Source of the DNA: Lonicera japonica | Taxonomy: Eukaryota; Streptophyta; Magnoliopsida; Dipsacales; Caprifoliaceae | Length of the DNA stretch: 64,000 nucleotides | Assembly: GCA_021464415.1 (NCBI GenBank) | Contig: JAKCWG010000035.1 | Span: forward strand, 62,001-126,000 | Direction of reading: 5' to 3' | Part shown: in pieces, positions 19,364-57,701 of the stretch | How positions within the stretch are numbered: the first letter of the stretch is position 1 | Layout: each line of letters starts with the position of its first letter | Made by a program: the position numbers and the translations under genes | The notes under the pieces: model-generated | Databases searched by the model: none | Told to the model about the DNA's origin: nothing | What the model saw: only the letters and a program-made list of their open reading frames with translations

Positions 19364-19486
19364 TGACGCGAACCCGGATCGTCTTTCCTAGCCAGGCTAA
19401 TGGATCCTTGACCCATAGTCTATAAACAGACTAGAACCTTGGAATCACGCGAAAGATGGAAGGCGAAAACCTCAACCAAACACTTC
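19364..19486 (-). repeat. Inverted LTR-end fragment
   Basis: Starts TGACGCGAACCCGGATCG, the reverse complement of the A/B-type LTR end, and runs about 120 bases through the CCTTGGAATCACGCG region before satellite resumes. It abuts a plus-strand LTR cut at 19363, so two LTR pieces meet in opposite orientation. Confidence 0.85.
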
Positions 19487-22400: not shown

Positions 22401-25400
22401 AAATATTTTTTTCGCGACTTTTTTCGATCAATAGGCTTCATTTTAAATTACAATAACTCAAGAAATTCGAAATTCAAGATCTGAAAGTCTACGATGGATT
22501 AACCAAGCTGTTCTTGTCGACTTTGTCGGTTTTGACCATTTATCGGTCTACACATCCGTTGTAGAACCTTAAGGCTGCAAAGTTTTTTTTTTCCCGACTT
22601 ATTTCAATCAAAAGGCTTCAATTTAAATTTCAATAACTCTAGAAATTCAAAATTCAAAAACTGAACGTCTACGATGGGTTAACAAAGCTCTTCTTGTCAA
22701 CTTTGTCGGTTTTGACCATTTATCGGTCTACAATTCCGTGGTAAATCCTTAAGGCTGCAACTTAATTTTTTCGCGACTTTTTTCTTCAAAAGGCTTCATT
22801 TTAAATTACCATAAATCTAGAAATTCGAAATTCGAAATATGAACCTCTACTATAGGTTAACCAAGCTCTTCTTGTCGACTATGTCGGTTTTGTCGGTCTA
22901 CAATTCCGTTGTAGATCCTTAAGAACGCAAAGTATTTCTTTCGCGACTTTTTTAAATCAAAAGGATTCATTTTAAATTATAGTAACTCTAGAAATTCAAA
23001 ATTCAAGATCTGAAAGTCTACGATGGGTTAACCATGCTCTTCTTGTCGACTTTGTCTGTTTTGACCATTTATCGGTCTACACATCCGTTGTAGAACCTTG
23101 AGGCTGCAAAGTAATTTTTTTGCGACTTTTTTCAATCAAAAGGCTGTAATTTAAATTACAATAACTCTAGAAATTCAAAAATCGAAATCGGAATGTCTAC
23201 GATCAGTTAACCAAGCTCTTCTTGTCAACTTTGTCGGTTTTGACCATTTATCGGTCTACAATTCCGTGGTAGATCCTTAAGGCTGCAACTTATTTTTTTC
23301 GCGACTGTTTTCTTCAAAAGGCTTCATTTTAATTTACAATAGCTCTAGAAAATCGAAATTCGAAATCTGATCCTCTACTGTAGGTTAACTAAGCTCTGCT
23401 TGTTGACTATGTCGGTTTTGACCATTTATCGGTCTACAATTCCGTTGTAGATCCTTAAGAAAGCAATGTATTTTTTTCGAGACATTTTTCGAGCAAAAGG
23501 CTTCATTTTAAATTACAATAACTCTAGAAATTCAAAATTCAAGATCTGAAAGTCTACGATGGGTTAACCAAGCTCTTCTTGTCGACTTTGTCAGTTTTGA
23601 CCATTTATCGGTCTAGTCATCCGTTGTAGAACCTTAAGGCTGCAAAGTATTTTTTTTCCTAACTTTTTTCAATCAAAAGGCTTCATTTTAAATTACAATA
23701 ACTCTAGAAATTCAAAATTCGAAATCTGAATGTCTAGGATGTGTTAACCAAGCTCTTCTTGTCGACTTTGTCGGTTTTCACCATTTATAGGTCTACAATT
23801 CCGTGGTAGATCCTTAAGGCTGTAAATTATTTTTTTCGCGACTTTTTTCTTCAAAAGGTTTCATTTTAAATTACAATAAATCTAGAAATTGGAAATATGA
23901 ACCTCTACTAAAGGTTAACCAAGCTCTTCTTGACGACTATGTCGGTTTTGTCGGTCTACAATTCCGTTATACATCCTTAAGAACGCAAAATATTTTTTTC
24001 GCGACTTTTTTCGATCAATAGGCTTCATTTTAAATTACAATAACTCTAGAAATTCGAAATTCAAGATCTGAAAGTCTACGATGGGTTAACCATGCTGTTC
24101 TTTTCGACTTTGTCGGTTTTGACCATTTATCGGTCGACACATCCGTGGTAGATCCTTAAGGCTGCAACTTATTTTTTTTACGACTTTTTTCTTGAAAAGG
24201 CTTCATTTTAAATTACAATAACTCTAGAAATTCGAAATCTGAACGTCTACTATGGGTTAACCAAGCTATTCTTGTCGACTATGTCGGTTTTAAGCATTTA
24301 TCGGTCTACAATTCCGTTGTGGATCCTCAAGGACGCAAAGTATTTTTTTCAATCAAAAGGCTTCATTTTAAAATATAATAACTCTTGAAATTCAAAATTG
24401 AAGATCTGAAAGTCTACGATGGGTTAAACAAGCTCTTGTTGTCGACTTTGTCAGTTTTGACCATTTATCAATTTACACATCCGTTGTATAACCTTGAGGC
24501 TGCAAAGTAATTTTTTTGCGACTTATTTCAATCAAAAGGCTGTAATTTAAATTACTATAACTCTAGAAATTCAAAATTCGAAATCGGATGTCTACGATCG
24601 GTTAACCAAGCTCTTCTTGTCGACTTTGTCGGTTTTTACCATTTATCGGTCTACAATTCCGTGGTAGATCCTTAAGGCTGCAAATTATTTTTTTCGCGAC
24701 TTTTTTCTTCAAAAGTCTTCATTTTAATTTACAATAGCTCTAGAAAATCGAAATTCGAAATCTGATCCTCTACTGTAGGTTAACTAAATTCTTCTTGTCG
24801 ACTATGTCGGTTTTGACCATTTATCGGTCTACAATTCCGTTGTAGATCCTTAAGGACGCAAAGTATTATTTGGGCAACTTTTTTCAATCAAAAGGCTTCA
24901 TTTTAAATTACAATAACTCTAGAAATTCAAAATTCGAAATCTGAATGTCTAGGATGGGTTAACCAAGCTCTTCTTGTCGACTTTGTCGGTTTTGACCATT
25001 TATCGGTCTACAATTTCGTGGTAGATCCATAAGGCTGCAACTTAATTTTTTCGCGACATTTTTCTTCAAAAGGCTTCATTTTAATTTACAATAAATCTAG
25101 AAATTCAAAATTCAAAATTCGAAATATGAACCTCTACTATAGGTTAGCCAAGCTCTTCTTGTCGACTATGTCGGTTTTGTCGGTCTGAAATTCCGTTGTA
25201 GATCCTTAAGAACGCAAAGTATTTATTTGGCGACTTTTTTCGATCAAAAGGCTTTATTTTAAATTACAATTACTCTAGAAATTCAAAATTCAAGATCTGA
25301 AAGTCTACGATGGGTTAACCAAGCTGTTCTTGTCGACTTTGTCGGTTTTGACCATTTATCGGTCTACACATCCGTTGTAGAACCTTAAGGCTGCAAAGTA

Positions 25401-28400
25401 TTTTTTTTCCCGACTTATTTCAATCAAAAGGCTTCAATTTAAATTTCAATAACTCTAGAAATTCAAAAATTGAAAACTGAACATCTACGATGGGTTAACC
25501 AAGCTCTTCTTGTCAACTTTGTCGGTTTTGACCATTTATCGGTCTACAATTCCGTGGTAGATCCTTAAAGGCTGCAACTTAATTTTTTCGCGACTTTTTT
25601 CTTCAAAAGGCTTCATTTTAAATTACCACAAATCTAGAAATTCGAAATTCGAAATATCAACCTCTACTATAGGTTAACCAAGCTCTTCTTGTCGACTATG
25701 TCGGTTTTGTCGGTCAACAATTCCGTCGTAGATCCTTAAGAACGCAAAGTATTTTTTTCGCGACTTTTTTCAATCAAAAGGATTCATTTTAAATTATAGT
25801 AACTCTAGAAATTAAAAATTCAAGATCTGAAAGTCTACGATTGGTTAACCAAGCTCTTCTTGTCGACTTTGTCAGTTTTGATCATTTATCGGTCTACACA
25901 TCCGTTGTAGAACCTTGAGGCTGCAATGTAATTTTTTTGCGACTTTTTTCAATCAAAAGGCTGTAATTTAAATTACAATAACTCTAGAAATTCAAAAATC
26001 GAAATCGCAATGTCTACGATCGGTTAACCAAGCTCTTCTTGTCAACTTTGTCGGTTTTGACCATTTATCGGTCTACAATTCCGTCGTAGATCCTTAAGGC
26101 TGCAACTTATTTTTTTCGCGACTGTTTTCTTCAAAAGGCATAATTTTGACCATTTCGCGACTTTTTTCGATCGAAAGGCTTCATTTTAAATTTCCATAAC
26201 TCTAGAAATTCGAAATTCGAAAACTGAACGTCTACGATGGGTTAACCAAGCTCTTTTTGTCAACTTTGTCGGTTTTGACCATTTATCGGTCTACAATTCT
26301 GTGGTAGATCCTTATGGCTGCAAGTTATTTTTTTCGCAACTTTTTTATTCAAAAGTCTTCATTTTAAATTACAATAACTCTAGAAATTCGAAATTCGAAA
26401 TCTGATCCTCTACTGTAGGTTAACTAAGCCCTGCTTGTTGGCTATGTCGATTTTGACCATTTATCGGTCTACAATTCCGTTGTAGATCCTTAAGAAAGCA
26501 AAAGTATTTTTTTTGCGACATTTTTCAATCAAAAGGCTTCATTTTAAATTACAATAACTCTAGAAATTCAAAATTCAAGATCTGAAAGTCTACGATGGGT
26601 TAACCAAGCTGTTCTTGTCGACTTTGTCGGTTTTGACCATTTATCGGTCTAGTCATCCGTTGTAGAACCTTAAGGCTGCAAAGTATTTTTTTTCCCAACT
26701 TTTTTCAATCAAAAGGCTTCATTTTAAATTACAATAACTCTAGAAATTCAAAATACGAAATCTGAATGTCTAGGATGGGCTAACCAAGCACTTCTTGTCG
26801 AGTTTGTCGGTTTTGACCATTTATCGGTTTACAATTCCGTGGTAGATCCTTATGGCTGCAACTTAATTTTTTCGCGACTTTTTTCTTCAAAAGGCTTCAT
26901 TTTAAATTACAATAAATCTAGAAGTTCGAAATTCGAAATATGAACCTCTACTATAGGTTAACCAAGCTCTTCTTGTCGACTATGTCGGTTTTGTCGATCT
27001 ACAATTCCGTTGTAGATCCTTAAGAACGCAAAGTATTTTTTTCGATCAAAAGGCTTCATTTTAAATTACAATAACTCTAGAAATTCAAAATTCAAGATCT
27101 GAAAGTTTACGATGGGTTAACCAAGCTGTTCTTGTCGACTTTGTCGGTTTGGACCATTTATCGGTCTACACATCCGTTGTAGAACCTTAAGGCTGCAAAG
27201 TATTTTTTCCCCCGACTTATTTCAATCAAAAGGCTTCAATTTAAATTTCAATAACTCTAGAAATTCAAAATTCGAAAACTGAACGTCTACGATGGGTTAA
27301 CCAAGCTCTTCTTGTCAACTTTGTCGGTTTTGACCATTTATCGGTCTACAATTCCGTGGTAGACCTTAAGGCTGCAACTTATTTTTTTCGCGACTTTTTT
27401 CTTCAAAAGTCTTCATTTTAAATTACAATAACACTAGAAATTTGAAATTCGAAATCTGAACGTCTACAATGGGTTAACCAAGCTCTTCTTGTCGACTATG
27501 TCGGTTTTAAACATTTATCGATCTATAATTCCGTTGTGGATCCTTAAGGACGCAAAGTATTTTTTTCGTGACTTTTTTCAATCAAAAGGCTTCATTTTAA
27601 ATTACAATAACTCTAGAAATTCAAAATTCAAGATCTGAAAGTCTACGATGGGTTAATCAAGCTCTTCTTGTCGACTTTGTCGGTTTTGACCATTTATCGG
27701 TGTAGTCATCCGTTGTAGAACCTTAAGGCTGCAAAGTATTTTTTTTCCCAACTTTTTTCAATCAAAAGGCTTCATTTTAAATTACAGTAACTCTAGAAAT
27801 TCAAAATTCGAAATCTGAATGTCTAGGATGGGTTAACCAAGCTCTTCTTGTTGACTTTGTCGGTTTTTACCATTTATCGGTCTACAATTCCGTGGTAGAT
27901 CCTTAAGGCTGTAAATTAATTTTTTCGCGACATTTTTCTTCAAAAGGCTTCATTTTAAATTACAATAAATCTAGAAATTCAAAATTCGAAATATGAACCT
28001 CTATTGTAGGTTAACCAAGCTCTTCTGGACAACTATGTCGGTTTTGTCGGTCTACAATTCCGTTGTAGATCCTTAAGAACGCAAAATATTTTTTTCGCGA
28101 CTTTTTTCGATCAAAAGGCTTCATTTTAAATTACAATAACTCTAGAAATTCAAAATTCAAGATCTGAAAGTCTACGATGGGTTAACCAAGCTGTTCTTGT
28201 CGACTTTGTCGGTTTTGACCATTTATCGGTCGACACATCCGTTGTAAAACCTTAAGGTTGCAAAATATTTTTTTCGCGACTTTTTTCGATCAAAAGGCTT
28301 CACTTTAAATTTCAATAACTCTAGAAATTCGAAATTCGAAAAATGAACGTCTACGAGGGGTTAACCAAGCTCTTCTTGTCAACTTTGTCGGTTTTGACCA

Positions 28401-29736
28401 TTAATCGGTCTACAATTCCGTGGTAGATCCTTAAGGATGCAACTTATTTTTTCCGTGACTTTTTTCTTCAAAAGTCTTCATTTTAAATTACAATAACACT
28501 AGAAATTCGAAATCTGAACGTCTACTATGGGTTAACCAAGCTCTTCTTGTCGACTATGTAGGTTTTAAACATTTATCGGTCTACAATTCCGTTGTGGATC
28601 CTTAAGGACGCAAAGTATTTTTTTCGCGACTTTTTTCAATCAAAAGGCTTCATTTTAAATTACAATAACTCTAGAAATTCAAAATTCAAGATCTGAAAGT
28701 CTACGGTGGGTTAATCAAGCTCTTCTTGTCGACTTTGTCGGTTTTGACCATTTATCGGTGTAGTCATCCGTTGTAGAACCTTAAGGCTGCAAAGTATTTT
28801 TTTTCCCAACTTTTTTCAATCAAAAGGCTTCATTTTAAATTACAATAACTCTAGAAAAAGTTCAAAATTCGAAATCTGAATGTCTAGGATGGGTTAACCA
28901 AGCTCTTCTTGTCGACTTTGTCGGTTTTTACCATTTATCGGTCAACAATTCCGTGGTAGATCCTTAGGGCTGTAAATTAATTTTTTCGCGACATTTTTCT
29001 TCAAAAGGCTTCATTTTAAATTACAATAAATCTAGAAATTCGAAATTCGAAATATGAACCTCTATTGTAGGTTAACCATGCTCTTCTGGACAACTATGTC
29101 GGTTTTGTCGGTCTACAATTCCGTTGTAGATCCTTAAGAACGCAAAATATTTTTTCGCGACTTTTTTCAATCAAAAGGCTTCATTTTAAATTACAATAAC
29201 TCTAGAAATTCAAAATTCAAGATCTGAAAGTCTACGATGGGTTAACCAAGTTGTTCTTGTTGACTTTGTCGGTTTTGACCATTTATCGGTCGACACATCC
29301 GTTGTAGAACCTTAAGGCTGCAAAATATTTTTTTCGCGACTTTTTTCGATCGAAAGGCTTCATTTTAAATTTCCATAACTCTAGAAATTCGAAATTCGAA
29401 AACTGAACGTCTACGATGGGTTAACCAAGCTCTTTTTGTCAACTTTGTCGGTTTTGACCATTTATCGGTCTACAATTCTGTGGTAGATCCTTATGGCTGC
29501 AAGTTATTTTTTTCGCAACATTTTTATTCAAAAGTCTTCATTTTAACTTACAATAACTCTAGAAATTCGAAATTCGAAATCTGAACATCTACTATGGGTT
29601 AACCAAGCTCTTCTTGTTGACTATGTCGGTTTTAACCATTTATCGGTCTACAATTCCGTTGTGGATCCTTAAGGACGCAAAATATTTTTTTCGCGACTTT
29701 TTTCAATCAAAAGGCTTCATTTTAAATTATAATAAC
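19487..29736 (-). repeat. Satellite array, inverse orientation, heterogeneous part
   Basis: Monomers of about 160-180 bases start at TCTAGAAATT; 20881, 21061, 21239 and 21410 give 180, 178 and 171. Each carries CTACGATGGGTTAACCAAGC, GTCGACTTTGTCGGTTTTGA, CCATTTATCGGTCTAC, CGCGACTTTTTTC and AAAAGGCTTCATTTTAAATT. Its reverse complement aligns along its length with the block 1 monomer: GACGTTCAGATTTCGAATT, AAAATGAAGCC, AAGGATC, AAATGGTCAA, ACAAAGTCGACAAGAAG and TTAACCCATC. So it is the same family turned around. Segments are reused at larger scale, for example a six-monomer, 1058-base step between about 27700 and 28760. No genes seen. Confidence 0.95.
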
Positions 29737-32700
29737 TCTAGAAATTCAAAATTCAAGATCTGAAAGTCTACGACGGGTTAACCAAGCTCTTCTTGTCGAC
29801 TTTGTCAATTTTGACCATTTATCGGTCTACACATCCGTTGTAGAACCTTGAGGCTGCAAAGTAATTTTTTTGCGACTTTTTTCAATCAAAAGGCTGTAAT
29901 TTAAATTACAATAACTCTAGAAATTCAAAATTCGAAATCGGAATGTCTACGATCGGTTAACCAAGCTCTTCTTGTCGACTTTGTCGGTTTTTACCATTTA
30001 TCGGTCTACAATTCCGTGGTAGATCCTTAAGGCTGCAACTTATTTTTTTCGCGACTTTTTTCTTCAAAAGGCTTCATTTTAATTTACAATAGCTCTAGAA
30101 AATCGAAATTCGAAATCTGATCCTCTACTGTAGGTTAACTAAGCACTTCTTGTCGACTATGTCGGTTTTGACCGTTTGTCGGTCTTCAATTCCGTTGTTG
30201 ATCCTTAAGGACGCAAATTATTTTTTGCGCGACTTTTTTCAATCAAAAGGCTTCATTTTAAATTACAATAACTCTAGAAATTCAAAGTTCAAGATCTGAA
30301 AGTCTACGATGGGTTAACCACACTCTTCTTGTCGACTTTGTCGGTTTGGATCATTTATCGGTCTACTCATCCGTTGTAGAACCTTAAGGCTGCAAAGTAT
30401 TTTTTTCCCAACTTTTTTCAATCAAAAGGCTTCATTTTAAATTACAATAACTCTAGAAATTCGAAATATGAACCTCTACTATAGGTGAACCAAGCTCTTC
30501 TTGTCGACTATGTCGGTTTTGTCGGTCTACAATTCCGTTGTAGATCCTTAAGAACGCAAAGTATTTTTTTCGCGACTTTTTTCGATCAAAAGGCTTCATT
30601 TTAAATTGCAATAACTCTAGAAATTCAAAATTCAAGATCTGAAAGTCTACGATGGATTAACCAAGCTGTTCTTGTTGACTTTGTTGGTTTTGACCATTTA
30701 TTGGTCTACACATCCGTTGTAGAACCTTAAGGCTGCAAACTATTTTTTTTCCCAACTTTTTTCAATCAAAATGCTTTAATTTAAATTTCAATAACTCTAG
30801 AAATTCAAAATTCGAAAACTGAACGTCTACGATGGGTTAACAAAGCTCTTCTTGTCAACTTTGTCGGTTTTGACCATTTATCGGTCTACAATTCCGTGGT
30901 AGATCCTTAAGGCTGCAACTTATTTTTTTCGCGACTTTTTTCTTCAAAAGGCTTCATTTTAAATTACCATAAATCTAGAAATTCGAAATTCGAAATATGA
31001 ACCTCTACTGTAGGTTGACCAAGCTCTTCTTGACGACTATGTCGGTTTTGTCGGTCTACAATTCCGTTGCAGATCTTTAAGAACACAAAATATTTTTTTC
31101 GCGACTTTTTTCGATCAAAAGGCTTCATTTGAAATTACAATAACTCTAGAAATTCAAAATTCAAGATCTGAAAGTCTACGATGGGTTAACCAAGCTTTTC
31201 TTGTCGACTTTGTCAATTTTGACCATTTATCGGTCTACACATCCGTTGTAGAACCTTGAGGCTGCAAAGTAATTTTTTTTGCGACTTTTTTCAATCAAAA
31301 GGCTGTAATTTAAATTACAACAACTCTAGAAATTCAAAATTCGAAATCGGAATGTCTACGATCGGTTAACCAAGCTCTTCTTGTCGACTTTGTCGGTTTT
31401 TACCATTTATCGGTCTACAATTCCGTGGTAGATCCTTAAGGCTGCAACTTATTTTTTTCGCGACTTTTTTCTTCAAAAGGCTTCATTTTAATTTACAATA
31501 GCTCTAGAAAATCGAAATTCGAAATCTGATCCTCTACTGTAGGTTAACTAAGCACTTCTTGTCGACTATGTCGGTTTTGACCGTTTGTCGGTCTTCAATT
31601 CCGTTGTTGATCCTTAAGGACGCAAATTATTTTTTGCGCGACTTTTTTCAATCAAAAGGCTTCATTTTAAATTACAATAACTCTAGAAATTCAAAGTTCA
31701 AGATCTGAAAGTCTACGATGGGTTAACCACACTCTTCTTGTCGACTTTGTCGGTTTGGATCATTTATCGGTCTACTCATCCGTTGTAGAACCTTAAGGCT
31801 GCAAAGTATTTTTTTCCCAACTTTTTTCAATCAAAAGGCTTCATTTTAAATTACAATAACTCTAGAAATTCGAAATATGAACCTCTACTATAGGTGAACC
31901 AAGCTCTTCTTGTCGACTATGTCGGTTTTGTCGGTCTACAATTCCGTTGTAGATCCTTAAGAACGCAAAGAATTTTTTTCGCGACTTTTTTCGATCAAAA
32001 GGATTCATTTTAAATTGCAATAACTCTAGAAATTCAAAATTCAAGATCTGAAAGTCTACGATGGATTAACCAAGCTGTTCTTGTTGACTTTGTTGGTTTT
32101 GACCATTTATTGGTCTACACATCCGTTGTAGAACCTTAAGGCTGCAAACTATTTTTTTTCCCAACTTTTTTCAATCAAAATGCTTTAATTTAAATTTCAA
32201 TAACTCTAGAAATTCAAAATTCGAAAACTGAACGTCTACGATGGGTTAACAAAGCTCTTCTTGTCAACTTTGTCGGTTTTGACCATTTATCGGTCTACAA
32301 TTCCGTGGTAGATCCTTAAGGCTGCAACTTATTTTTTTCGCGACTTTTTTCTTCAAAAGGCTTCATTTTAAATTACCATAAATCTAGAAATTCGAAATTC
32401 GAAATATGAACCTCTACTGTAGGTTGACCAAGCTCTTCTTGACGACTATGTCGGTTTTGTCGGTCTACAATTCCGTTGCAGATCTTTAAGAACACAAAAT
32501 ATTTTTTTCGCGACTTTTTTCGATCAAAAGGCTTCATTTGAAATTACAATAACTCTAGAAATTCAAAATTCAAGATCTGAAAGTCTACGATGGGTTAACC
32601 AAGCTTTTCTTGTCGACTTTGTCAATTTTGACCATTTATCGGTCTACACATCCGTTGTAGAACCTTGAGGCTGCAAAGTAATTTTTTTGCGACTTTTTTC

Positions 32701-35700
32701 AATCAAAAGGCTGTAATTTAAATTACAACAACTCTAGAAATTCAAAATTCGAAATCGGAATGTCTACGATCGGTTAACCAAGCTCTTCTTGTCGACTTTG
32801 TCGGTTTTTACCATTTATCGGTCTACAATTCCGTGGTAGATCCTTAAGGCTGCAACTTATTTTTTTCGCGACTTTTTTCTTCAAAAGGCTTCATTTTAAT
32901 TTACAATAGCTCTAGAAAATCGAAATTCGAAATCTGATCCTCTACTGTAGGTTAACTAAGCACTTCTTGTCGACTATGTCGGTTTTGACCGTTTGTCGGT
33001 CTTCAATTCCGTTGTTGATCCTTAAGGACGCAAATTATTTTTTGCGCGACTTTTTTCAATCAAAAGGCTTCATTTTAAATTACAATAACTCTAGAAATTC
33101 AAAGTTCAAGATCTGAAAGTCTACGATGGGTTAACCACACTCTTCTTGTCGACTTTGTCGGTTTGGATCATTTATCGGTCTACTCATCCGTTGTAGAACC
33201 TTAAGGCTGCAAAGTATTTTTTTCCCAACTTTTTTCAATCAAAAGGCTTCATTTTAAATTACAATAACTCTAGAAATTCGAAATATGAACCTCTACTATA
33301 GGTGAACCAAGCTCTTCTTGTCGACTATGTCGGTTTTGTCGGTCTACAATTCCGTTGTAGATCCTTAAGAACGCAAAGTATTTTTTTCGCGACTTTTTTC
33401 GATCAAAAGGATTCATTTTAAATTGCAATAACTCTAGAAATTCAAAATTCAAGATCTGAAAGTCTACGATGGATTAACCAAGCTGTTCTTGTTGACTTTG
33501 TTGGTTTTGACCATTTATTGGTCTACACATCCGTTGTAGAACCTTAAGGCTGCAAACTATTTTTTTTCCCAACTTTTTTCAATCAAAATGCTTTAATTTA
33601 AATTTCAATAACTCTAGAAATTCAAAATTCGAAAACTGAACGTCTACGATGGGTTAACAAAGCTCTTCTTGTCAACTTTGTCGGTTTTGACCATTTATCG
33701 GTCTACAATTCCGTGGTAGATCCTTAAGGCTGCAACTTATTTTTTTCGCGACTTTTTTCTTCAAAAGGCTTCATTTTAAATTACCATAAATCTAGAAATT
33801 CGAAATTCGAAATATGAACCTCTACTGTAGGTTGACCAAGCTCTTCTTGACGACTATGTCGGTTTTGTCGGTCTACAATTCCGTTGCAGATCTTTAAGGA
33901 CACAAAATATTTTTTTCGCGACTTTTTTCGATCAAAAGGCTTCATTTGAAATTACAATAACTCTAGAAATTCAAAATTCAAGATCTGAAAGTCTACGATG
34001 GGTTAACCAAGCTTTTCTTGTCGACTTTGTCAATTTTGACCATTTATCGGTCTACACATCCGTTGTAGAACCTTGAGGCTGCAAAGTAATTTTTTTGCGA
34101 CTTTTTTCAATCAAAAGGCTGTAATTTAAATTACAACAACTCTAGAAATTCAAAATTCGAAATCGGAATGTCTACGATCGGTTAACCAAGCTCTTCTTGT
34201 CGACTTTGTCGGTTTTTACCATTTATCGGTCTACAATTCCGTGGTAGATCCTTAAGGCTGCAACTTATTTTTTTCGCGACTTTTTTCTTCAAAAGGCTTC
34301 ATTTTAATTTACAATAGCTCTAGAAAATCGAAATTCGAAATCTGATCCTCTACTGTAGGTTAACTAAGCACTTCTTGTCGACTATGTCGGTTTTGACCGT
34401 TTGTCGGTCTTCAATTCCGTTGTTGATCCTTAAGGACGCAAATTATTTTTTGCGCGACTTTTTTCAATCAAAAGGCTTCATTTTAAATTACAATAACTCT
34501 AGAAATTCAAAGTTCAAGATCTGAAAGTCTACGATGGGTTAACCACACTCTTCTTGTCGACTTTGTCGGTTTGGATCATTTATCGGTCTACTCATCCGTT
34601 GTAGAACCTTAAGGCTGCAAAGTATTTTTTTCCCAACTTTTTTCAATCAAAAGGCTTCATTTTAAATTACAATAACTCTAGAAATTCGAAATATGAACCT
34701 CTACTATAGGTGAACCAAGCTCTTCTTGTCGACTATGTCGGTTTTGTCGGTCTACAATTCCGTTGTAGATCCTTAAGAACGCAAAGAATTTTTTTCGCGA
34801 CTTTTTTCGATCAAAAGGATTCATTTTAAATTGCAATAACTCTAGAAATTCAAAATTCAAGATCTGAAAGTCTACGATGGATTAACCAAGCTGTTCTTGT
34901 TGACTTTGTTGGTTTTGACCATTTATTGGTCTACACATCCGTTGTAGAACCTTAAGGCTGCAAACTATTTTTTTTCCCAACTTTTTTCAATCAAAATGCT
35001 TTAATTTAAATTTCAATAACTCTAGAAATTCAAAATTCGAAAACTGAACGTCTACGATGGGTTAACAAAGCTCTTCTTGTCAACTTTGTCGGTTTTGACC
35101 ATTTATCGGTCTACAATTCCGTGGTAGATCCTTAAGGCTGCAACTTATTTTTTTCGCGACTTTTTTCTTCAAAAGGCTTCATTTTAAATTACCATAAATC
35201 TAGAAATTCGAAATTCGAAATATGAACCTCTACTGTAGGTTGACCAAGCTCTTCTTGACGACTATGTCGGTTTTGTCGGTCTACAATTCCGTTGCAGATC
35301 TTTAAGAACACAAAATATTTTTTTCGCGACTTTTTTCGATCAAAAGGCTTCATTTGAAATTACAATAACTCTAGAAATTCAAAATTCAAGATCTGAAAGT
35401 CTACGATGGGTTAACCAAGCTTTTCTTGTCGACTTTGTCAATTTTGACCATTTATCGGTCTACACATCCGTTGTAGAACCTTGAGGCTGCAAAGTAATTT
35501 TTTTGCGACTTTTTTCAATCAAAAGGCTGTAATTTAAATTACAACAACTCTAGAAATTCAAAATTCGAAATCGGAATGTCTACGATCGGTTAACCAAGCT
35601 CTTCTTGTCGACTTTGTCGGTTTTTACCATTTATCGGTCTACAATTCCGTGGTAGATCCTTAAGGCTGCAACTATTTTTTTTCGCGACTTTTTTCTTCAA

Positions 35701-38533
35701 AAGGCTTCATTTTAATTTACAATAGCTCTAGAAAATCGAAATTCGAAATCTGATCCTCTACTGTAGGTTAACTAAGCACTTCTTGTCGACTATGTCGGTT
35801 TTGACCGTTTGTCGGTCTTCAATTCCGTTGTTGATCCTTAAGGACGCAAATTATTTTTTGCGCGACTTTTTTCAATCAAAAGGCTTCATTTTAAATTACA
35901 ATAACTCTAGAAATTCAAAGTTCAAGATCTGAAAGTCTACGATGGGTTAACCACACTCTTCTTGTCGACTTTGTCGGTTTGGATCATTTATCGGTCTACT
36001 CATCCGTTGTAGAACCTTAAGGCTGCAAAGTATTTTTTTCCCAACTTTTTTCAATCAAAAGGCTTCATTTTAAATTACAATAACTCTAGAAATTCGAAAT
36101 ATGAACCTCTACTATAGGTGAACCAAGCTCTTCTTGTCGACTATGTCGGTTTTGTCGGTCTACAATTCCGTTGTAGATCCTTAAGAACGCAAAGTATTTT
36201 TTTCGCGACTTTTTTCGATCAAAAGGATTCATTTTAAATTGCAATAACTCTAGAAATTCAAAATTCAAGATCTGAAAGTCTACGATGGATTAACCAAGCT
36301 GTTCTTGTTGACTTTGTTGGTTTTGACCATTTATTGGTCTACACATCCGTTGTAGAACCTTAAGGCTGCAAACTATTTTTTTTCCCAACTTTTTTCAATC
36401 AAAATGCTTTAATTTAAATTTCAATAACTCTAGAAATTCAAAATTCGAAAACTGAACGTCTACGATGGGTTAACAAAGCTCTTCTTGTCAACTTTGTCGG
36501 TTTTGACCATTTATCGGTCTACAATTCCGTGGTAGATCCTTAAGGCTGCAACTTATTTTTTTCGCGACTTTTTTCTTCAAAAGGCTTCATTTTAAATTAC
36601 CATAAATCTAGAAATTCGAAATTCGAAATATGAACCTCTACTGTAGGTTGACCAAGCTCTTCTTGACGACTATGTCGGTTTTGTCGGTCTACAATTCCGT
36701 TGCAGATCTTTAAGGACACAAAATATTTTTTTCGCGACTTTTTTCGATCAAAAGGCTTCATTTGAAATTACAATAACTCTAGAAATTCAAAATTCAAGAT
36801 CTGAAAGTCTACGATGGGTTAACCAAGCTTTTCTTGTCGACTTTGTCAATTTTGACCATTTATCGGTCTACACATCCGTTGTAGAACCTTGAGGCTGCAA
36901 AGTAATTTTTTTGCGACTTTTTTCAATCAAAAGGCTGTAATTTAAATTACAACAACTCTAGAAATTCAAAATTCGAAATCGGAATGTCTACGATCGGTTA
37001 ACCAAGCTCTTCTTGTCGACTTTGTCGGTTTTTACCATTTATCGGTCTACAATTCCGTGGTAGATCCTTAAGGCTGCAACTTATTTTTTTCGCGACTTTT
37101 TTCTTCAAAAGGCTTCATTTTAATTTACAATAGCTCTAGAAAATCGAAATTCGAAATCTGATCCTCTACTGTAGGTTAACTAAGCACTTCTTGTCGACTA
37201 TGTCGGTTTTGACCGTTTGTCGGTCTTCAATTCCGTTGTTGATCCTTAAGGACGCAAATTATTTTTTGCGCGACTTTTTTCAATCAAAAGGCTTCATTTT
37301 AAATTACAATAACTCTAGAAATTCAAAGTTCAAGATCTGAAAGTCTACGATGGGTTAACCACACTCTTCTTGTCGACTTTGTCGGTTTGGATCATTTATC
37401 GGTCTACTCATCCGTTGTAGAACCTTAAGGCTGCAAAGTATTTTTTTCCCAACTTTTTTCAATCAAAAGGCTTCATTTTAAATTACAATAACTCTAGAAA
37501 TTCGAAATATGAACCTCTACTATAGGTGAACCAAGCTCTTCTTGTCGACTATGTCGGTTTTGTCGGTCTACAATTCCGTTGTAGATCCTTAAGAACGCAA
37601 AGTATTTTTTTCGCGACTTTTTTCGATCAAAAGCCTTCATTTTAAATTGCAATAACTCTAGAAATTCAAAATTCAAGATCTGAAAGTCTACGATGGATTA
37701 ACCAAGCTGTTCTTGTTGACTTTGTTGGTTTTGACCATTTATTGGTCTACACATCCGTTGTAGAACCTTAAGGCTGCAAACTATTTTTTTTCCCAACTTT
37801 TTTCAATCAAAATGCTTTAATTTAAATTTCAATAACTCTAGAAATTCAAAATTCGAAAACTGAACGTCTACGATGGGTTAACAAAGCTCTTCTTGTCAAC
37901 TTTGTCGGTTTTGACCATTTATCGGTCTACAATTCCGTGGTAGATCCTTAAGGCTGCAACTTATTTTTTTCGCGACTTTTTTCTTCAAAAGGCTTCATTT
38001 TAAATTACCATAAATCTAGAAATTCGAAATTCGAAATATGAACCTCTACTGTAGGTTGACCAAGCTCTTCTTGACGACTATGTCGGTTTTGTCGGTCTAC
38101 AATTCCGTTGCAGATCTTTAAGGACACAAAATATTTTTTTCGCGACTTTTTTCGATCAAAAGGCTTCATTTGAAATTACAATAACTCTAGAAATTCAAAA
38201 TTCAAGATCTGAAAGTCTACGATGGGTTAACCAAGCTTTTCTTGTCGACTTTGTCAATTTTGACCATTTATCGGTCTACACATCCGTTGTAGAACCTTGA
38301 GGCTGCAAAGTAATTTTTTTGCGACTTTTTTCAATCAAAAGGCTGTAATTTAAATTACAATAACTCTAGAAATTCAAAATTCGAAATCGGAATGTCTACG
38401 ATCGGTTAACCAAGCTCTTCTTGTCGACTTTGTCGGTTTTTACCATTTATCGGTCTACAATTCCGTGGTAGATCCTTAAGGCTGCAACTTATTTTTTTTC
38501 GCGACTTTTTTCTTCAAAAGGCTTCATTTTAAA
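29737..38533 (-). repeat. Homogeneous 1408-bp (8-monomer) higher-order repeat array
   Basis: From 29737 the sequence repeats with a period of 1408-1409 bases. Monomer starts in the copy at 30452 are 30452, 30616, 30796, 30974, 31145, 31325, 31503 and 31682, then 31861 (lengths 164, 180, 178, 171, 180, 178, 179, 179). Equivalent landmarks (GAAATATGAACCTCTACTATAGG) fall at about 30460, 31870, 33278, 34686, 36094 and 37502. There are just over six copies, differing at only scattered bases. The order breaks near 38533, where a sixth-type monomer is followed by a fourth-type monomer. No coding content is supported. Confidence 0.95.
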
Positions 38534-38752
38534 TTACCATAAATTTAGAAATTCAAAATTCGAAATAAGAACCTCTACTGTAGGTTGACCAAGCTCTTCT
38601 TGACGACTATGTCGGTTTTGTCGGTCTACAATTCCGTTGTAGATCTTTAAAGACGCAAAATATTTTTTTCGCGACTTTTGTCGATCAAAAGGCTTCATTT
38701 GAAATTACAATAACTCTAGAAATTCAAAATTCAAGATCTGAAAGTCTACGAT
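38534..38752 (-). repeat. Satellite edge left of palindromic element
   Basis: One fourth-type and part of a fifth-type monomer, more diverged than the homogeneous array. It is interrupted at ACGAT (38748-38752) by the palindromic element. The same monomer continues at 42284. Confidence 0.85.
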
Positions 38753-39497
38753 TGATATGATCCGGTCTAGCTCCAGTTTCTATTCAACCATGGTGGTTCA
38801 TGGCATTCTAAATGATGATCCATACCTGATGAATTACAAGGATAGAGCATGGAAATTCAAATGGAATTTTATAGAATTTCACATGCTTGAAGCAAGGAGC
38901 TTAAATGATAATCATACATTTAATGGAGTTCCTAAGGACTGGGCGTGGAAGTTCAAGAGGTTAAAACGGCAAGGAGTCCCATTGGAATAATCTAGAAGAT
39001 ATTAATTTAAATTGTTTTTAAATTAATAGGGCTTCTTGAGTCTCATTATTCAATTAGGAATTAGAATTAGTAGTTTCCTTTTTGAATATTTTCCTTATTA
39101 TTTATTATTAATTTCCTTATTGCATTAGGAATATTCTAGGAGTTATTATTTTCCTTTTCTAAGTAGGAATTAGTTTCCTTTTTTGAATTAGGATTCTAAG
39201 GCTTTGTTTACTCCTATTTAAAGGAGGCACATTATTGTTTTATTAATTAAGCTTTGATGATTAATAATATTGAGAGTTTTCTCTTTGTGTTCTCTAAGAA
39301 CATGTTGAACATGTTGAATTGATTAATTCAATTGTTCTTGACTTATCAATCAATTCTCCACCAATTGATTGTGGCGTCTTCGACTATACCGAGGTTCGCG
39401 CTTCTTTAAGCGTTGGGTTGAGGTTTCCGCCTTCCATCTTTCGACGTATTCCAAGGTTCTTGCTACGTTTGTATCAAGGGTTGAGGATCCATTAGCC
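38753..39497 (+). repeat. LTR1 of palindromic element, left copy, U5 end missing
   Basis: Begins TGATATGATCCGGTCTAGC. Core promoter dyad at 39211-39226. It follows the right copy (41509-42283, inverse) to ATTAGCC and lacks the last roughly 30 bases, where LTR2 begins. Confidence 0.88.
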
Positions 39498-40170
39498 TGG
39501 CAAACACAACGAATTGGTTGTGCGAACCTCGACACAGACACACACGAAAACCGTAGCAAATTAAGAACCTGGATCGTTTCTACAATCAGATTAGGATGGA
39601 AATCGAAGACGCCACAACCGGGTGCGGAATACCGATTGATAAGTCGGGTGAACGCCACGGACAAACCGATAAGTTCAAGTAGTTCGTGAAGAACCAAAGA
39701 GGATTAAATCACTCAATCTTATTATGAATAAAGTCTTAGATTATAAAATAAAACAACGAAGCCCCCTTTAAATAGGGAGAAGAAAACTTAGGCCACAAGA
39801 AACCAATCCAATAAGGAATCCTCAAACAAATCCTAATCAAACAAGAACTAGTTTTTAAGACGAAATAACAATAATAAATAAATAATAAATAAAACGAGTG
39901 GGCTGGCTTGACTCCACTTCTTGGGCCGCATAGACATAGTCTTCTCACTCCAATTGGGCTTGAATAAGTGTAACCCAGCCTCCATTTTGTGCTCCACGTT
40001 TTTCCCCTCCAATGGGCTTGATTGTGCCTTCTTCTTGAGCCCAAATAGCTTGAATTAATCCATTAAGCGCAGCCTTTAACTTCTTAGCCCGCGATCTTGT
40101 AATTGGGCCTGTTGGAACTTGGATGGCCTTTGAATTGTCTTCATTTTGCACAACAGTCTTGCCTCCATCA
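39498..40170 (-). repeat. LTR2, a different LTR subfamily, containing polyprotein tail coding
   Basis: On the minus strand it starts TGATGGAGGC directly after polypurine CAAGAGGAGGGGAA and ends TTGTGTTTGCCA. It carries the promoter core CCCTATTTAAAGGG (plus-strand 39764-39777 region). The open frame of the internal region continues into it and encodes QVPTGPITRSRAKKLKAAL, a motif typical of gypsy polyprotein C-termini. Element D has the same arrangement. Confidence 0.78.
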
Positions 40171-40630
40171 TTCCCCTCCTCTTGAAAAGGATTTGCCCTC
40201 AAATCATCACTGGCATCAAACTTCTTGCCATGCAACAATTCAATTTTTCTCAATTTGTTGAAGAAGTTAACTAGCCGGTAATTCGGATCAATATCAAACT
40301 TATCAACGCCAATGAAATCAATATGCTCAATTTCAACAATCTTTAAATCTAATCCTTCAACTTGAATATCCTCTTTTTTCTTAGTGACAATGACGTTCAT
40401 GTCAATAGCTATCTTTGGAGCTTTATGCATAATATTTTGTACTTGAATGATATCTTCTCGCTGTACTTCTTCATCTTCTTTTACTTGCACACTTGGAACT
40501 ATGCTTGCATCCAACAATTTGCATTGTAGATCACTCTCTTCATCCTCCATTGATGGCTTAAAATTAGATTCTAGTTCATTCTTTGATAGTGGCTTGGATA
40601 TGGCTCCCTTCTCCTCTTTACATTGATTTG
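40171..40630 (-). pseudogene. Inverted partial copy of the element protein
   Basis: Minus-strand frame reading MEDEESDLQCKLLDAS, VDKFDIDPNYRLVNFFNKLRK, LLHGKKFD, then CCAGTGAT-type filler and DLRANPFQEEGND. It is the inverted duplicate of 40917-41508. It lacks the roughly 130 bases that encode the KYSKYLFYWHGR part in the right arm, and it lacks the N-terminus because the copy ends at 40630. Confidence 0.85.
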
Positions 40631-40642
40631 CAATTTAAAGTT

Positions 40643-41536
40643 ATGGATGATTCAAAATTCATTACCGAGGCTTTCGTAGCTGAGGTGAGAAAGGTCTTTA
40701 GAGAGGAATTTGATCCACTTCATAAGCGGTTGGCAACAGTTTGTAAAAATCTAGATCAAGTTGAGAAGAGACAAGTCAAGCTATCATATAATGATCCTAA
40801 TGGGAGAAGGAGAATTCATCCTAGAAAGAATAGGGTTGAAGATGATTGGGATCCGGGAATTGAATTCAACATGATGGGCAGCGTAGAGTCATGTCCGAAT
40901 GCAACCTTTTACAAATCAAATCAATGTAAAGAGGAGAAGGGAGCCATATCCAAGCCACTATCAAAGAATGAACTAGAATCTAATTTTAAGCCATCAATGG
41001 AGGATGAAGAGAGTGATCTACAATGCAAATTGTTGGATGCAAGCATAGTTCCAAGTGTGCAAGTAAAAGAAGATGAAGAAGTACAGCGAGAAGATATCAT
41101 TCAAGTACAAAATATTATGCATAAAGCTCCAAAGATAGCTATTGACATGAACGTCATTGTCACTAAGAAAAAAGAGGATATTCAAGTTGAAGGATTAGAT
41201 TTAAAGATTGTTGAAATTGAGCATATTGATTTCATTGGCGTTGATAAGTTTGATATTGATCCGAATTACCGGCTAGTTAACTTCTTCAACAAATTGAGAA
41301 AAATTGAATTGTTGCATGGCAAGAAGTTTGATGAGTTTCGAAAGGCAAGGAATTTCAAGCATCGTAAATATTCGAAGTACTTGTTCTATTGGCATGGAAG
41401 ATATCAAGCTTCGAAGAGGCATTCAAGGATTAATTTTGTCGAAAAGTGGGTGATTTGTGTACAACCTAACACGGATTTGAGGGCAAATCCTTTTCAAGAG
41501 GAGGGGAATGACGCGATCCCGGATCGTCTTTTCTAG
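40643..41536 (+). CDS. Intact element protein of the YSKYLF-WHGR family
   Basis: An uninterrupted frame of about 297 codons. I place the start at ATG 40643 (MDDSKFITEAF) because upstream codons belong to the inverted arm. Residues 1-55 are charged and probably coiled coil (VRKVFREEFDPLHKRLATVC). Next come EDDWDPG and a Ser/Lys/Glu-rich middle. Then DFIGVDKFDIDPNYRLVNFF, NKLRKIELLHGKKF, HRKYSKYLFYWHGR and the tail DLRANPFQEEGND, encoded through the polypurine tract. The reading frame then runs into inverted LTR1. It matches the protein split by a frameshift in element A and the C-terminal domain in C and B. No enzymatic motif is visible. It could be a gag-like structural protein, but I do not recognise the family. 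Confidence 0.72.
   Translation: MDDSKFITEAFVAEVRKVFREEFDPLHKRLATVCKNLDQVEKRQVKLSYNDPNGRRRIHPRKNRVEDDWDPGIEFNMMGSVESCPNATFYKSNQCKEEKGAISKPLSKNELESNFKPSMEDEESDLQCKLLDASIVPSVQVKEDEEVQREDIIQVQNIMHKAPKIAIDMNVIVTKKKEDIQVEGLDLKIVEIEHIDFIGVDKFDIDPNYRLVNFFNKLRKIELLHGKKFDEFRKARNFKHRKYSKYLFYWHGRYQASKRHSRINFVEKWVICVQPNTDLRANPFQEEGNDAIPDRLF
41495..41508 (+). other. Polypurine tract joined to an inverted LTR
   Basis: CAAGAGGAGGGGAA, followed not by an LTR start but by TGACGCGATCCCGG, the reverse complement of an LTR end. The normal junction of the same tract is seen inverted at 40170/40171. Confidence 0.85.
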
Positions 41537-42283
41537 CCAGGCTAATGGATCCTCAACCCTTGATACAAACGTAGCAAGAACCTTGGAATACGTCGAAAGA
41601 TGGAAGGCGGAAACCTCAACCCAACGCTTAAAGAAGCGCGAACCTCGGTATAGTCGAAGACGCCACAATCAATTGGTGGAGAATTGATTGATAAGTCAAG
41701 AACAATTGAATTAATCAATTCAACATGTTCAACATGTTCTTAGAGAACACAAAGAGAAAACTCTCAATATTATTAATCATCAAAGCTTAATTAATAAAAC
41801 AATAATGTGCCTCCTTTAAATAGGAGTAAACAAAGCCTTAGAATCCTAATTCAAAAAAGGAAACTAATTCCTACTTAGAAAAGGAAAATAATAACTCCTA
41901 GAATATTCCTAATGCAATAAGGAAATTAATAATAAATAATAAGGAAAATATTCAAAAAGGAAACTACTAATTCTAATTCCTAATTGAATAATGAGACTCA
42001 AGAAGCCCTATTAATTTAAAAACAATTTAAATTAATATCTTCTAGATTATTCCAATGGACTCCTTGTCGTTTTAACCTCTTGAACTTCCACGCCCAGTCC
42101 TTAGGAACTCCATTAAATGTATGATTATCATTTAAGCTCCTTGCTTCAAGCATGTGAAATTCTATAAAATTCCATTTGAATTTCCATGCTCTATCCTTGT
42201 AATTCATCAGGTATGGATCATCATTTAGAATGCCATGAACCACCATGGTTGAATAGAAACTGGAGCTAGACCGGATCATATCA
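41509..42283 (-). repeat. LTR1 of palindromic element, right copy, complete
   Basis: 775 bases from TGATATGATCC (at 42283 on the minus strand) to GGGATCGCGTCA. Core promoter dyad at 41811-41826. It differs from the left copy by, for example, one C in GGAGTCCCATTGG. Confidence 0.88.
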
Positions 42284-43903
42284 ACGATGGTTTAACCAAG
42301 CTGTTCTTGTCGACTTTGTCAATTTTGACCATTTATCGGTCTACAAATCCATTGTAGAACCTTGAGGCTGCAAAGTAATTTTTTGTGACTTTTTTCAATC
42401 AAAAGGCTGTAATTCAAATTACAATAACTCTAGAAATTCAAAATTCAAAATCGGAATGTCTACGAACGGTTTACCAAGCTCTTCTTGTCGACTTTGTCGG
42501 TTTTGACCATTTATCGGTCTACACATTCGTTGTAGAACCTTAAGGCTGCAAAGTATTTTTTTTCTCTACTTTTTTCAATCAAAAGGCTTCAATTTAAATT
42601 TCAATAACTCTAGAAATTCAAAATTCGAAAATTGAACGTCTACGATGGGTTAACAGAGCTCTTCTTGTCAACTTTGTCGGTTTTGACCATTAATCGGTCT
42701 ACAATTCTGTGGTAGATCCTTAAGGCTGCAACTTAATTTTTTCGCGACTTTTTTCTTCAAAAGGCTTCATTTTAAATTACAATAACTCTAGAAATTCGAA
42801 ATATGAACCTCTACTATAGGTTAACCAAGCTCTTCTTGTCGACTATGTCGGTTTTGTCGGTCTACAATTCCGTTGTAGATCAAAAGGCTACATTTGAAAT
42901 TACAATAACTCTAGAAATTCAAAATTCAAGGTTTGAAAGTCTACGATGGGTTAACCAAGCTGTTCTTGTCGACTTTGTCGGTTTTGACCATTTATCAGTC
43001 TACACATCTATTGTAGAACCTTAAGGCTGCAAAGTATTTTTTTTCTCGACTTTTTTCAATCAAAAGGCTTCAATTTAAATTTCAATAACTCTAGAAATTC
43101 AGAATTCGAAAACTGAACGTCTACGATGGGTTAACCAAGCTCTTCTTGTCAACTTTGTCGGTTTTGACCATTAATCGGTCTACAATTCCGTGGTAGATCC
43201 TTAAGGCTGCAACTTATTTTTTTCGCGACGTTTTTCTTCAAAAGGCTTCATTTTAAATTACAATAACTCTAGAAATTTGAAATTCGAAATCTGAACGTCT
43301 ACTATGGGTTAACCAAGCTCTTCTTGTCGACTATGTCGGTTTTAACCATTTATCGGTCTACAATTCCGTTGTGGATCCTTAAGGACGCAAAGTATTTTTT
43401 TCGCGACTTTTTTCAATCAAAAGGCTTCATTTTAAATTACAATAACTTTAGAAATTCAAAATTCAAGATCTGAAAGTCTACGATGGGTTAATCAAGCTCT
43501 TTTTGTCGACTTTATCGGTTTTGACCATTTATCGGTCTAGTCATCCGTTGTAAACCTTAAGGCTGCAAAGTATTTTTTTTCCCAACTTTTTTCAATCAAA
43601 AGGCTTCATTTTAAATTACAATAACTCTAGCATTTCAAAATTCGAAATCTGAATGTCTAGGATGGGTTAACCAAGCTCTTCTTGTCGACTTTGTTGGTTT
43701 TGACCATTTATCGGTCTACAATTCCGTGGTAGATCCTTAAGGCTGTAAATTAATTTTTTCGCGACTTTTTTCTTCAAAAGGCTTCATTTTAAATTACAAT
43801 AAATCTAGAAATTCGAAATTCGAAATATGAACCTTTACTGTAGGTTAACCAAGCTCTTCTTGACGACTATGTCGGTTTTGTCGGTCTACAATTTCGTTGT
43901 AGA
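42284..43903 (-). repeat. Satellite array, inverse orientation, right remnant
   Basis: Continues the monomer interrupted at 38752, in the same orientation as 19487-38752. About nine monomers, one shortened around 42882. It ends at TTTCGTTGTAGAT against copia coding sequence. It is not part of the 1408-bp homogeneous array. Confidence 0.93.
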
Positions 43904-50800: not shown

Positions 50801-51663
50801 TGTGATATCGGATCGTTTTTCCTAGCCAGGTTAATGAATCCTCAACCCTTGAACTACGAAAGTGCAAGAACCTTGGAATTACGTCGAAAAGATGGAAGGC
50901 GGAACCTAAACTCAACCCTTGAATGCAAGAATTGAACCTCGGTATAAGTCGAAGACGCCACAATCAATTAGTGGAGAATTGATTGATAAGTCAAGAATTA
51001 GTTTGAATGATTAATTCAAACAATTCAACAAGTTCTAGCAAGAACTCAAGGTGTAGAACACTCAATTTTAATTAATAATAGCTTGATTAAAAAACATTAA
51101 TGTGCCTCCTTTAAATAGGAGCAAACAAAACAATAGAATCCTAAAAAGATAAGGAAACTAATTCCTATTTAAAATAGGAGTCCTAAATAAATAAAGGAAA
51201 CTAATTAAATATTATCTCCTATCAAATAAAGAAAGAAACTGCCAAAATAATAATAAAACTAATTCAATCCTTCTTCGCTAGCCGGTCGTGAGAACACGCT
51301 AGAAAAATAAAATTGAATTTTGGACTTTAAGCCATGCCCACACCTTATCAGAATAGCACTTCTGCCTTTTGGACACAATTTCCCAGCTTTGACGTGCCCA
51401 CGCTTTAAGCAAACACCTCTTCTGTTTTCTTCACATTTGGTTCCACATCTTTTTGGCTAAGAATTGTCCTCCATTCTTGTTTATCATCTCCTTGAACGAT
51501 TCTCCAAGCTTCAGCTTTATTCATCAACTCTTGGACCATGATCATGAGTACATCATTCGTCTTCCTTACTCTAGCTCGGGTGATTGGACCACTCGGAACC
51601 CGAATGGGGTCCGCATAGTCTTCACTCAATGATCTAGCTCTAGTGTTATCCTTGGACTCATCA
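50801..51663 (-). repeat. 3' LTR of element D
   Basis: 863 bases on the minus strand, TGATGAGTCCAAGG to CGATCCGATATCACA. Core promoter dyad at 51106-51121. The end region (TACGTCGAAAAGATGGAAGG and GCCAGG-TAATG, plus strand) matches A and B LTR ends. The region near 51270-51430 matches the C LTR. The reading frame from integrase continues into it, encoding VPSGPITRARVRK. Confidence 0.85.
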
Positions 51664-52728: not shown

Positions 52729-53154
52729 TCACAAGTAACTCACGCAATGAACATGTAGGCACACAAGTTTGTTTTCACGCATTAGAAATCCATCATGCCT
52801 AAAGTACTTATCAAATCCATCAACATCGTCATAATACAAATCCTTAATGTACTCAAATCCAAGCAACTTAGCATCTAAAGTAGCAATTAAAGCATACATG
52901 CGCGACAAAGCATCTGTTACAACATTCTCTTTACCTTGCTTGTACTTGATCACATATGAAAAAGTTTCTATAAACTCCACCCATTTGGCATGGCGCTTAT
53001 TCAACTTTTGTTGTCCCTTCAAGTGCTTCAACGATTCATGATCCGTGTGAATCACGAATTCCTTCGGCCAAAGATAGTGCTGCCATGTATGCAATACTCT
53101 CACCAAAGCATAGAGCTCCTTGTCGTAGGTAGGGTAATTTAAGGTCTCCCCCAC
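52729..53154 (-). pseudogene. RNase H domain (element D)
   Basis: Reads [41 protein letters not shown] and [10 protein letters not shown], typical of gypsy RNase H. TDHESL holds a catalytic Asp and DALSR the last one. It is out of frame with the upstream reverse transcriptase, with a frameshift near 53150 inside what should be a continuous [15 protein letters not shown] stretch. The next domain, integrase, follows after an in-frame spacer ([17 protein letters not shown]). Confidence 0.88.
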
Positions 53155-57687: not shown

Positions 57688-57700
57688 GTCTCCCACTTGT
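57688..57700 (-). other. Polypurine tract of element E
   Basis: Minus-strand ACAAGTGGGAGAC directly before LTR start TGAAAGAG, the usual copia arrangement. Confidence 0.88.
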
Positions 57701-57701
57701 A

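What the first reader, a model, noticed from the sequence alone, without database searches (positions are those of the whole stretch)
38753..42283. Palindromic retroelement with two U3 termini integrated with a 5-bp target duplication
Both ends of this 3.5-kb unit are the LTR start (TGATATGATCC inwards), and ACGAT flanks both sides inside one satellite monomer. The target duplication implies that an integrase inserted a DNA whose two ends were both U3 ends, i.e. an inverted-dimer or fold-back cDNA rather than a normal linear cDNA. The inner arms (40171-40630 and 40917-41508) look identical where they pair, around a 286-base unique spacer, as expected if one strand was copied back on itself. 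The alternative is a normal insertion later remodelled by inversion, but that would not readily give U3 at both ends next to a matching duplication. I do not know a described family with this architecture.
Basis: partly seen in the sequence, partly recalled or inferred. Interest (0 to 1): 0.85.

Follow-up and report, generated by a model that had tools for sequence, protein, structure and literature searches.

The report
Back-to-back retrotransposon inserted by two left ends
In a plant satellite array sits a 3.5-kb piece of retrotransposon DNA whose two ends are both the left end of the element and which still carries the 5-base scar of normal integration; the best reading is a garbled, inverted copy made by reverse transcriptase that the integrase nevertheless accepted.

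Summary
38753-42283 is bounded by inverted copies of one LTR (749-bp alignment, 1 substitution, 1 indel), U3 ends outward, between two copies of ACGAT. Polarity is settled by a relative in the window (U5-CGCGTCA, then a primer site; polypurine tract (PPT), then TGATATGATCC). The joined flanks fit the satellite in phase and higher-order register: one insertion with a 5-bp duplication. Inside, the right LTR is turned round exactly at both its ends, so its U5 end abuts the PPT. The left LTR lacks 27 bp of U5 and is fused to an antisense second LTR type. The inner arms pair perfectly over 417 and 38 bp but differ by a 140/8-bp block; there is no primer site. Simple fold-back of one strand does not give this; several template switches, probably between different RNAs, can. 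Most likely a mosaic inverted cDNA with U3 on both sides was integrated by integrase. Exact later inversion of the 3' LTR is the main rival. It is a new variant of known template-switch complexes. One copy was seen; no plant genome could be searched.

The parts
38748..38752 (.). Left copy of the 5-bp target duplication ACGAT
   Evidence: register test
38753..39501 (+). LTR1, sense, U3 outward; lacks the last 27 bp of U5
   Evidence: 747 of its 749 bases identical to the right copy; the right copy aligns with the 3' LTR of relative A2 at 9865-10522
39502..40170 (-). LTR2, a second LTR type, antisense; starts TGATGGAGG right after the PPT, has a TATA-like TATTTAAA; U5 end apparently cut off (inferred)
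   Evidence: Sequence; its U3 protein part is identical in 64 of 74 residues to Lonicera P0013
40171..40186 (-). PPT (antisense) of the left half: TTCAAGAGGAGGGGAA
40187..40213 (-). pol-type 3' end (ASDDLRANPFQEEGND, which runs into the PPT) joined to the gag-like frame at AAGTTTGAT
   Evidence: homologues P0014, P0015, P0017
40214..40639 (-). Inner arm, left: gag-like sequence, antisense
   Evidence: 40214-40630 identical, 417 of 417, to 40917-41333
40631..40916 (+). 286-base unpaired centre holding the start of the gag-like frame (ATG at 40643)
40908..41333 (+). Inner arm, right: gag-like sequence, sense
41334..41473 (+). 140 bases present only in the right half
40643..41536 (+). Gag-like open frame that runs through the PPT into the inverted LTR
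   Evidence: query 40652-41533 has 9 homologues, 8 of them Lonicera macranthoides at 41-54% identity; no Pfam family at E <= 0.01
41493..41508 (+). PPT (TTCAAGAGGAGGGGAA) of the right half, abutting the U5 end of LTR1
41509..42283 (-). LTR1, complete, inverted exactly: U5 end on the PPT, U3 end on the target duplication
42284..42288 (.). Right copy of ACGAT
19486..38752 (+). 179-bp satellite array that received the insertion (continues 42284-43880)
   Evidence: 1408-bp higher-order period

Best explanation
An aberrant reverse-transcription product of a non-autonomous, probably Ty3-type family. Shown: two near-identical LTR1 copies with U3 outward, U5 end directly on the PPT on the right, LTR2 and a different recombination joint on the left, no primer-binding site, a 5-bp duplication in correct satellite register. 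Inferred: in one particle, growing sense strands that ended in the PPT (right) or in LTR2 U5 (left) landed on the U5 end of LTR1 plus-strand strong-stop DNA instead of following the normal primer-site transfer, and copied it to its 5' end. That would explain why both outer ends are exact U3 termini (run-off) and why the right switch lies exactly at the U5/primer-site boundary. The two halves were joined head to head through the 5' part of the gag-like region, by cross-priming of two minus strands or by end joining. The integrase of an autonomous relative then inserted the two U3 ends together with a 5-bp stagger; in this LTR1 the U3 start TGATATGATCC and the inverted U5 end TGACGCGATCC agree in 8 of 11 bases, so a second U3 end would look much like the normal U5 end.
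For: Polarity: U5-CGCGTCA-T-TGGTATCAGAGC and PPT-TGATATGATCC in relative A2. One insertion: flanks share phase and register with a 5-base overlap. Common origin of the outer LTRs: 1 substitution and 1 indel in 749 bp, while the matches over 400 bp to other LTR1-like copies in the window are 90-92% identical. Exact LTR boundary at the PPT, with TCATT/AATGA shared between the U5/primer-site joint of A1 and A2 and the PPT/U3 joint of the left half, A1 and D. Mosaic parents: gag-like part, pol end plus LTR2, LTR1. A second element in the window (19364) also has an exact inverted U5 end, there placed after the U3 TATA region. Template-switch complexes with a target duplication are described in grasses (PMC1950507, whole text read).
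Against: One copy only. Several switches in one round are required. PPT/U3 joints of A2, whose LTR is closest at the U3 end, and of B read TATGA, not AATGA, and the inverted U5 ends of A1, A2 and B read GAACC, not GATCC, so neither microhomology is general in the family. No element with the native 5' leader of this gag-like frame was seen, so overlap at the central joint could not be checked; nor could the LTR1/LTR2 joint on the left. Short matches to other LTR1-like copies can be closer (95.1% over 103 bp at 6906-7008). The paper listings showed no two-U3 insertion for comparison.
Confidence: 0.66

Rival explanations
1. Normal insertion of an element with direct LTRs, whose 3' LTR was later inverted in place between its TGA...TCA ends, with a separate inverted insertion or duplication replacing the primer-site region on the left.
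For: The target duplication would be that of an ordinary insertion; the ends of this LTR1 form an imperfect inverted repeat (8 of 11 bases).
Against: Needs two breaks exactly at the LTR boundaries plus an independent second rearrangement on the left; the arms are young (1 substitution in 1204 paired bases), though gene conversion could make them look so.
Confidence: 0.14
2. Two partial cDNAs from one particle were each joined to the target by their U3 end in one concerted reaction, and the two free inner ends were then joined by the host.
For: Explains two U3 ends, the duplication and the unequal halves. Concerted use of two like ends by integrase in vitro is recalled; I did not see it in the listings.
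Against: Each half already has LTR1 U5 fused to antisense body sequence, so aberrant reverse transcription is still needed; this differs from the best explanation only in how the centre was joined.
Confidence: 0.12
3. Two independent opposite insertions at the same satellite position, followed by deletion between them.
For: 60 of 111 monomer sites carry ACGAT at this position, so equal pentamers at two sites are not rare.
Against: Both flanks fall in the same register with a 5-base overlap; the outer LTRs match in 747 of 749 bases while the longer matches to other copies are 90-92%; the LTRs are followed by PPT or LTR2, not by primer sites.
Confidence: 0.03
4. Assembly artefact (fold-back read).
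For: Palindromes are typical of fold-back chimeras (general knowledge); no reads were available.
Against: The satellite runs in the same direction on both sides, the halves are unequal (LTR2, 140/8-bp block) and the outer arms differ at two positions.
Confidence: 0.04

Closest known systems
Template-switch complexes of LTR retrotransposons in Poaceae (Sabot and Schulman 2007, PMC1950507, whole text read; figures not held)
   Same: More than one LTR and body in one insertion, flanking 5-bp duplication, highly similar outer LTRs, explained by template switching between co-packaged RNAs
   Different: As the text describes them, two bodies share a third, internal LTR and the outer LTRs are those of a normal element; here the halves are inverted and both outer ends are U3
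Autointegration products of LTR elements (passages of PMC9694575)
   Same: An LTR joined to internal sequence
   Different: Those are circles; here both ends of a linear DNA lie in the genome with a duplication
DIRS elements with inverted terminal repeats (PMC5633606, search listings only; detail recalled)
   Same: Inverted terminal repeats on a retroelement
   Different: Recalled to use a tyrosine recombinase and to make no duplication; here TG...CA ends and a 5-bp duplication point to a DDE integrase
Elements of Lonicera macranthoides with the same gag-like frame or LTR part (P0004-P0011, P0013)
   Same: Gag-like frame (P0004-P0011) and LTR2 U3 protein part (P0013)
   Different: In P0011 the frame passes from the PPT region into U3-like sequence in the normal direction; only proteins, not DNA, were seen

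Membership tests
LTR retrotransposon insertion | 5-bp target duplication next to TG...CA ends | tested here: met
LTR retrotransposon insertion | LTRs in direct orientation | tested here: not met
   LTR1 copies are inverted
LTR retrotransposon insertion | Primer-binding site after the 5' LTR | tested here: not met
   For the tRNA-Met type used by A1 and A2: none of the 5 window matches lies in the unit; best match in the unit 8 of 12. Other tRNA types were not tested.
LTR retrotransposon insertion | PPT next to U3 of the 3' LTR | tested here: not met
   Right: PPT next to the U5 end of LTR1. Left: PPT next to U3 of LTR2, which is not an outer LTR
Template-switch complex (Sabot and Schulman) | Flanking duplication and near-identical outer LTRs | tested here: met
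Template-switch complex (Sabot and Schulman) | Third, internal LTR and two complete bodies | tested here: not met
   Partial antisense LTR2 inside; bodies inverted and incomplete
DIRS-like element | No target duplication; tyrosine recombinase | tested here: not met
   Duplication present. The two frames of the unit that were scanned gave no Pfam family

The most novel reading that the evidence does not exclude
The inverted likeness of the two LTR ends (TGANNNGATCC in this LTR1) regularly misroutes the second strand transfer in this subfamily, so it keeps producing palindromic cDNA with U3 at both ends that integrase accepts: a retroelement line drifting into an integrase-moved element with long terminal inverted repeats made of LTRs.
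Probability: 0.12. Interest if true: 0.8.

Novelty: new variant of a known kind. Interest (0 to 1): 0.5.

Why it matters
If right, it is a natural record that the integrase of a plant LTR element can insert two U3 ends in vivo, and that strand-transfer errors onto the U5/primer-site boundary can yield integrable palindromes. Palindromes of this kind can seed hairpin RNA and local instability (general knowledge, not tested here). LTR finders that require direct LTRs would miss such insertions (inference), so their frequency is open and can be counted.

Tried and rejected
Initial reading of the PPT-TGACGCG joint as a normal 3' LTR start, which would have reversed the polarity (note): rejected once the primer-binding site after CGCGTCA and the PPT before TGATATGATCC were seen in relatives. 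Simple self-fold-back of one strand: rejected because of LTR2 on one side only and the unequal inner arms. DNA transposon: rejected because the 749-bp arms are LTRs with PPT- and primer-site-bearing relatives.

Searches that gave nothing: Rfam at gathering scores (0 matches), tRNA genes (0), exact LTR1 end in viral contigs (0; a collection where a plant element is hardly expected). The third protein search (copia frame P0002, best 120 of 4783 listed) did not name the species. Nine paper searches for inverted or two-U3 LTR insertions and near topics: 20 of 48 listed; 1 of 1; 20 of 76; 15 of 99; 7 of 7; 0; 8 of 8; 15 of 53; 15 of 84. By title and start of abstract none of those listed describes such an insertion. 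Only PMC1950507 was read whole; PMC9694575 was seen in seven passages and PMC10462705 in one, a line of its reference list. The library holds open-licence papers only.

Not achieved: the plant's own genome could not be searched, and no plant DNA collection was searched; plant sequences were seen only as proteins.

Full report
What is there. The unit 38753-42283 (3531 bp) lies in a 179-bp satellite array (19486-38752 and 42284-43880). From the left: ACGAT; LTR1 sense 38753-39501; LTR2 antisense 39502-40170; antisense PPT, pol-type end and gag-like sequence 40171-40639; the start of the gag-like frame in sense (ATG 40643); gag-like sequence in sense to 41473; 3' end and PPT to 41508; LTR1 antisense 41509-42283; ACGAT.

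Polarity. In the relative A2 (6903-10522) the 5' LTR remnant ends CGCGTCA, then T, then TGGTATCAGAGC at 7008-7019, the common plant primer site for initiator tRNA-Met (recalled). Its PPT GAAGAAGAGGGGTA stands before TGATATGATCC at 9865. The right LTR1 aligns from its first to its last base with the 3' LTR of A2, with a poorly matching, partly absent U3 stretch between (605 identical of 787 columns, the last two beyond the LTR). So TGATATGATCC is the U3 start and CGCGTCA the U5 end, and both ends of the unit are U3 ends.

One insertion. The two flanks with one ACGAT, 800 bases, align end to end with satellite copies of one register at up to 92.9% (1149-1160 bits, five copies); the best match outside that register has 1050 bits. 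Left-flank matches end at 33999 or 35407 and right-flank matches start at 33995 or 35403, an overlap of five. Over 111 equivalent sites, the top six for the left flank share one register of the 1408-bp higher-order repeat and take ranks 1, 2, 3, 5, 6 and 7 for the right flank; ranks 4-7 are tied, and the fourth (29774) is of the same register. By position the insertion lies 529 bp, three monomers, after such a site (38223), and spacings of 529 bp occur elsewhere in the array (site lists; my arithmetic). So register alone may be as weak a test as 1 in 3; equal phase with a 5-base overlap adds roughly 1 in 178 (estimate). 60 of 111 sites carry ACGAT, so the pentamer itself proves little.

Unequal halves. 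The outer LTRs differ by 1 substitution and 1 indel, and the left one stops 27 bp before the U5 end. The inner arms are identical over 417 and 38 bases but have 8 bases on the left against 140 on the right. In the left half the gag-like frame passes at AAGTTTGAT into ASDDLRANPFQEEGND, which resembles the same stretch in P0014, P0015 and P0017, and runs on into LTR2; in the right half the same 38-base end is reached 132 bases later. LTR2 occurs on the left only. Hence the halves are not simply one strand copied on itself; I infer at least two template RNAs. LTR2 is linked to Lonicera by P0013 (64 of 74 residues). The gag-like frame (query 40652-41533) has nine homologues, eight of them from Lonicera macranthoides (41-54% identity over 27-75% of the query) and one unnamed (39% over 43%). 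The window is thus plant DNA, perhaps of a honeysuckle relative; the species was not identified.

Joints. Right LTR1 joint: GGGGAA|TGACGCG. In A1 and A2 the U5/primer-site boundary reads CGCGTCATTGG, and the PPT/U3 boundaries of the left half, A1 and D read GGAATGA; TCATT/AATGA is common to both. In A2 and B the PPT/U3 boundary reads GGTATGA, so there only TCA is shared. In this LTR1 the U3 start and the inverted U5 end share TGANNNGATCC; in A1, A2 and B the inverted U5 end has GAACC. Both likenesses give a place where a strand leaving the PPT could land on the U5 end of plus-strand LTR DNA; copying from there to its 5' end would give the exact U3 terminus. This is inference. A similar exact inverted U5 end occurs in element B at 19364, after the TATA region of its U3. 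Of the six U5 ends found in the window at up to 4 mismatches, two are followed by primer sites, two stand at satellite borders, and two are these inverted ones.

Age. One substitution in 1204 paired bases gives about 32,000 years at 1.3e-8 per site and year (rate recalled), upper bound about 180,000 years; gene conversion between arms would make this too young.

Alternatives. Concerted insertion of two separate U3 ends with later joining differs only in the time of the central joint. Two independent insertions and an artefact are unlikely for the reasons given in the rivals.

Known work. Sabot and Schulman (PMC1950507, whole text; figures not held) describe four complexes with flanking duplications (two Angela complexes in Triticeae, one in rice, one in maize), explained by template switching; nothing in the text describes inverted halves or two U3 outer ends. 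My nine paper searches (listed under tried and rejected, several with capped lists) showed no such case among the papers listed; open-licence papers only. I therefore rate it as a new variant of a known kind. That integrases can pair two like ends in vitro is recalled and was not seen in the listings.

Limits. The Ty3-type assignment of this non-autonomous unit is inferred from the pol-type end and from LTR and PPT likeness to D (reverse transcriptase and RNase H matches).

Noticed in passing
3613-10522: Two related elements (A1 antisense 3613-6902, LTRs 98.2% alike over 602 bp; A2 sense 6903-10522) stand head to head with primer sites facing; the 5' LTR of A2 is cut to 104 bp exactly at the U3 end of A1. 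Outer ends are exact U5 ends in satellite, without matching duplication.
   Followed up: partly
18394-19485: Element B: LTR with U3 up to the TATA region, then an exact inverted U5 end (TGACGCG at 19364) running 122 bases to the satellite; again an LTR end turned round.
   Followed up: partly
18509-18846: A short solo LTR (338 bp, TGATGTGG...GTATCA) inside the LTR of B, flanked by GGAAT on both sides; 57 bp of it are 82% like LTR2 of the finding.
   Followed up: partly
50801-55216: Antisense Ty3-type element D with reverse transcriptase, RNase H and zinc-knuckle matches and a sub-threshold integrase match; its 3' LTR is 83% like LTR1 over 382 bp, a possible autonomous partner family.
   Followed up: partly
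30784-38223: The 179-bp satellite has a regular 1408-bp eight-monomer higher-order repeat here; spacings of three monomers (529 bp) occur elsewhere.
   Followed up: partly
906-3612 and 10523-16007: A second satellite (about 175- and 144-bp units) in the same window, interrupted by elements A1/A2 and meeting the first satellite across element B.
   Followed up: no
55249-64000: Apparent antisense copia-type element: repeats 55249-55877 and 63022-63650 (94.8%), a primer site at 63009-63020, open frame 57702-59834 with RVT_2.
   Followed up: no
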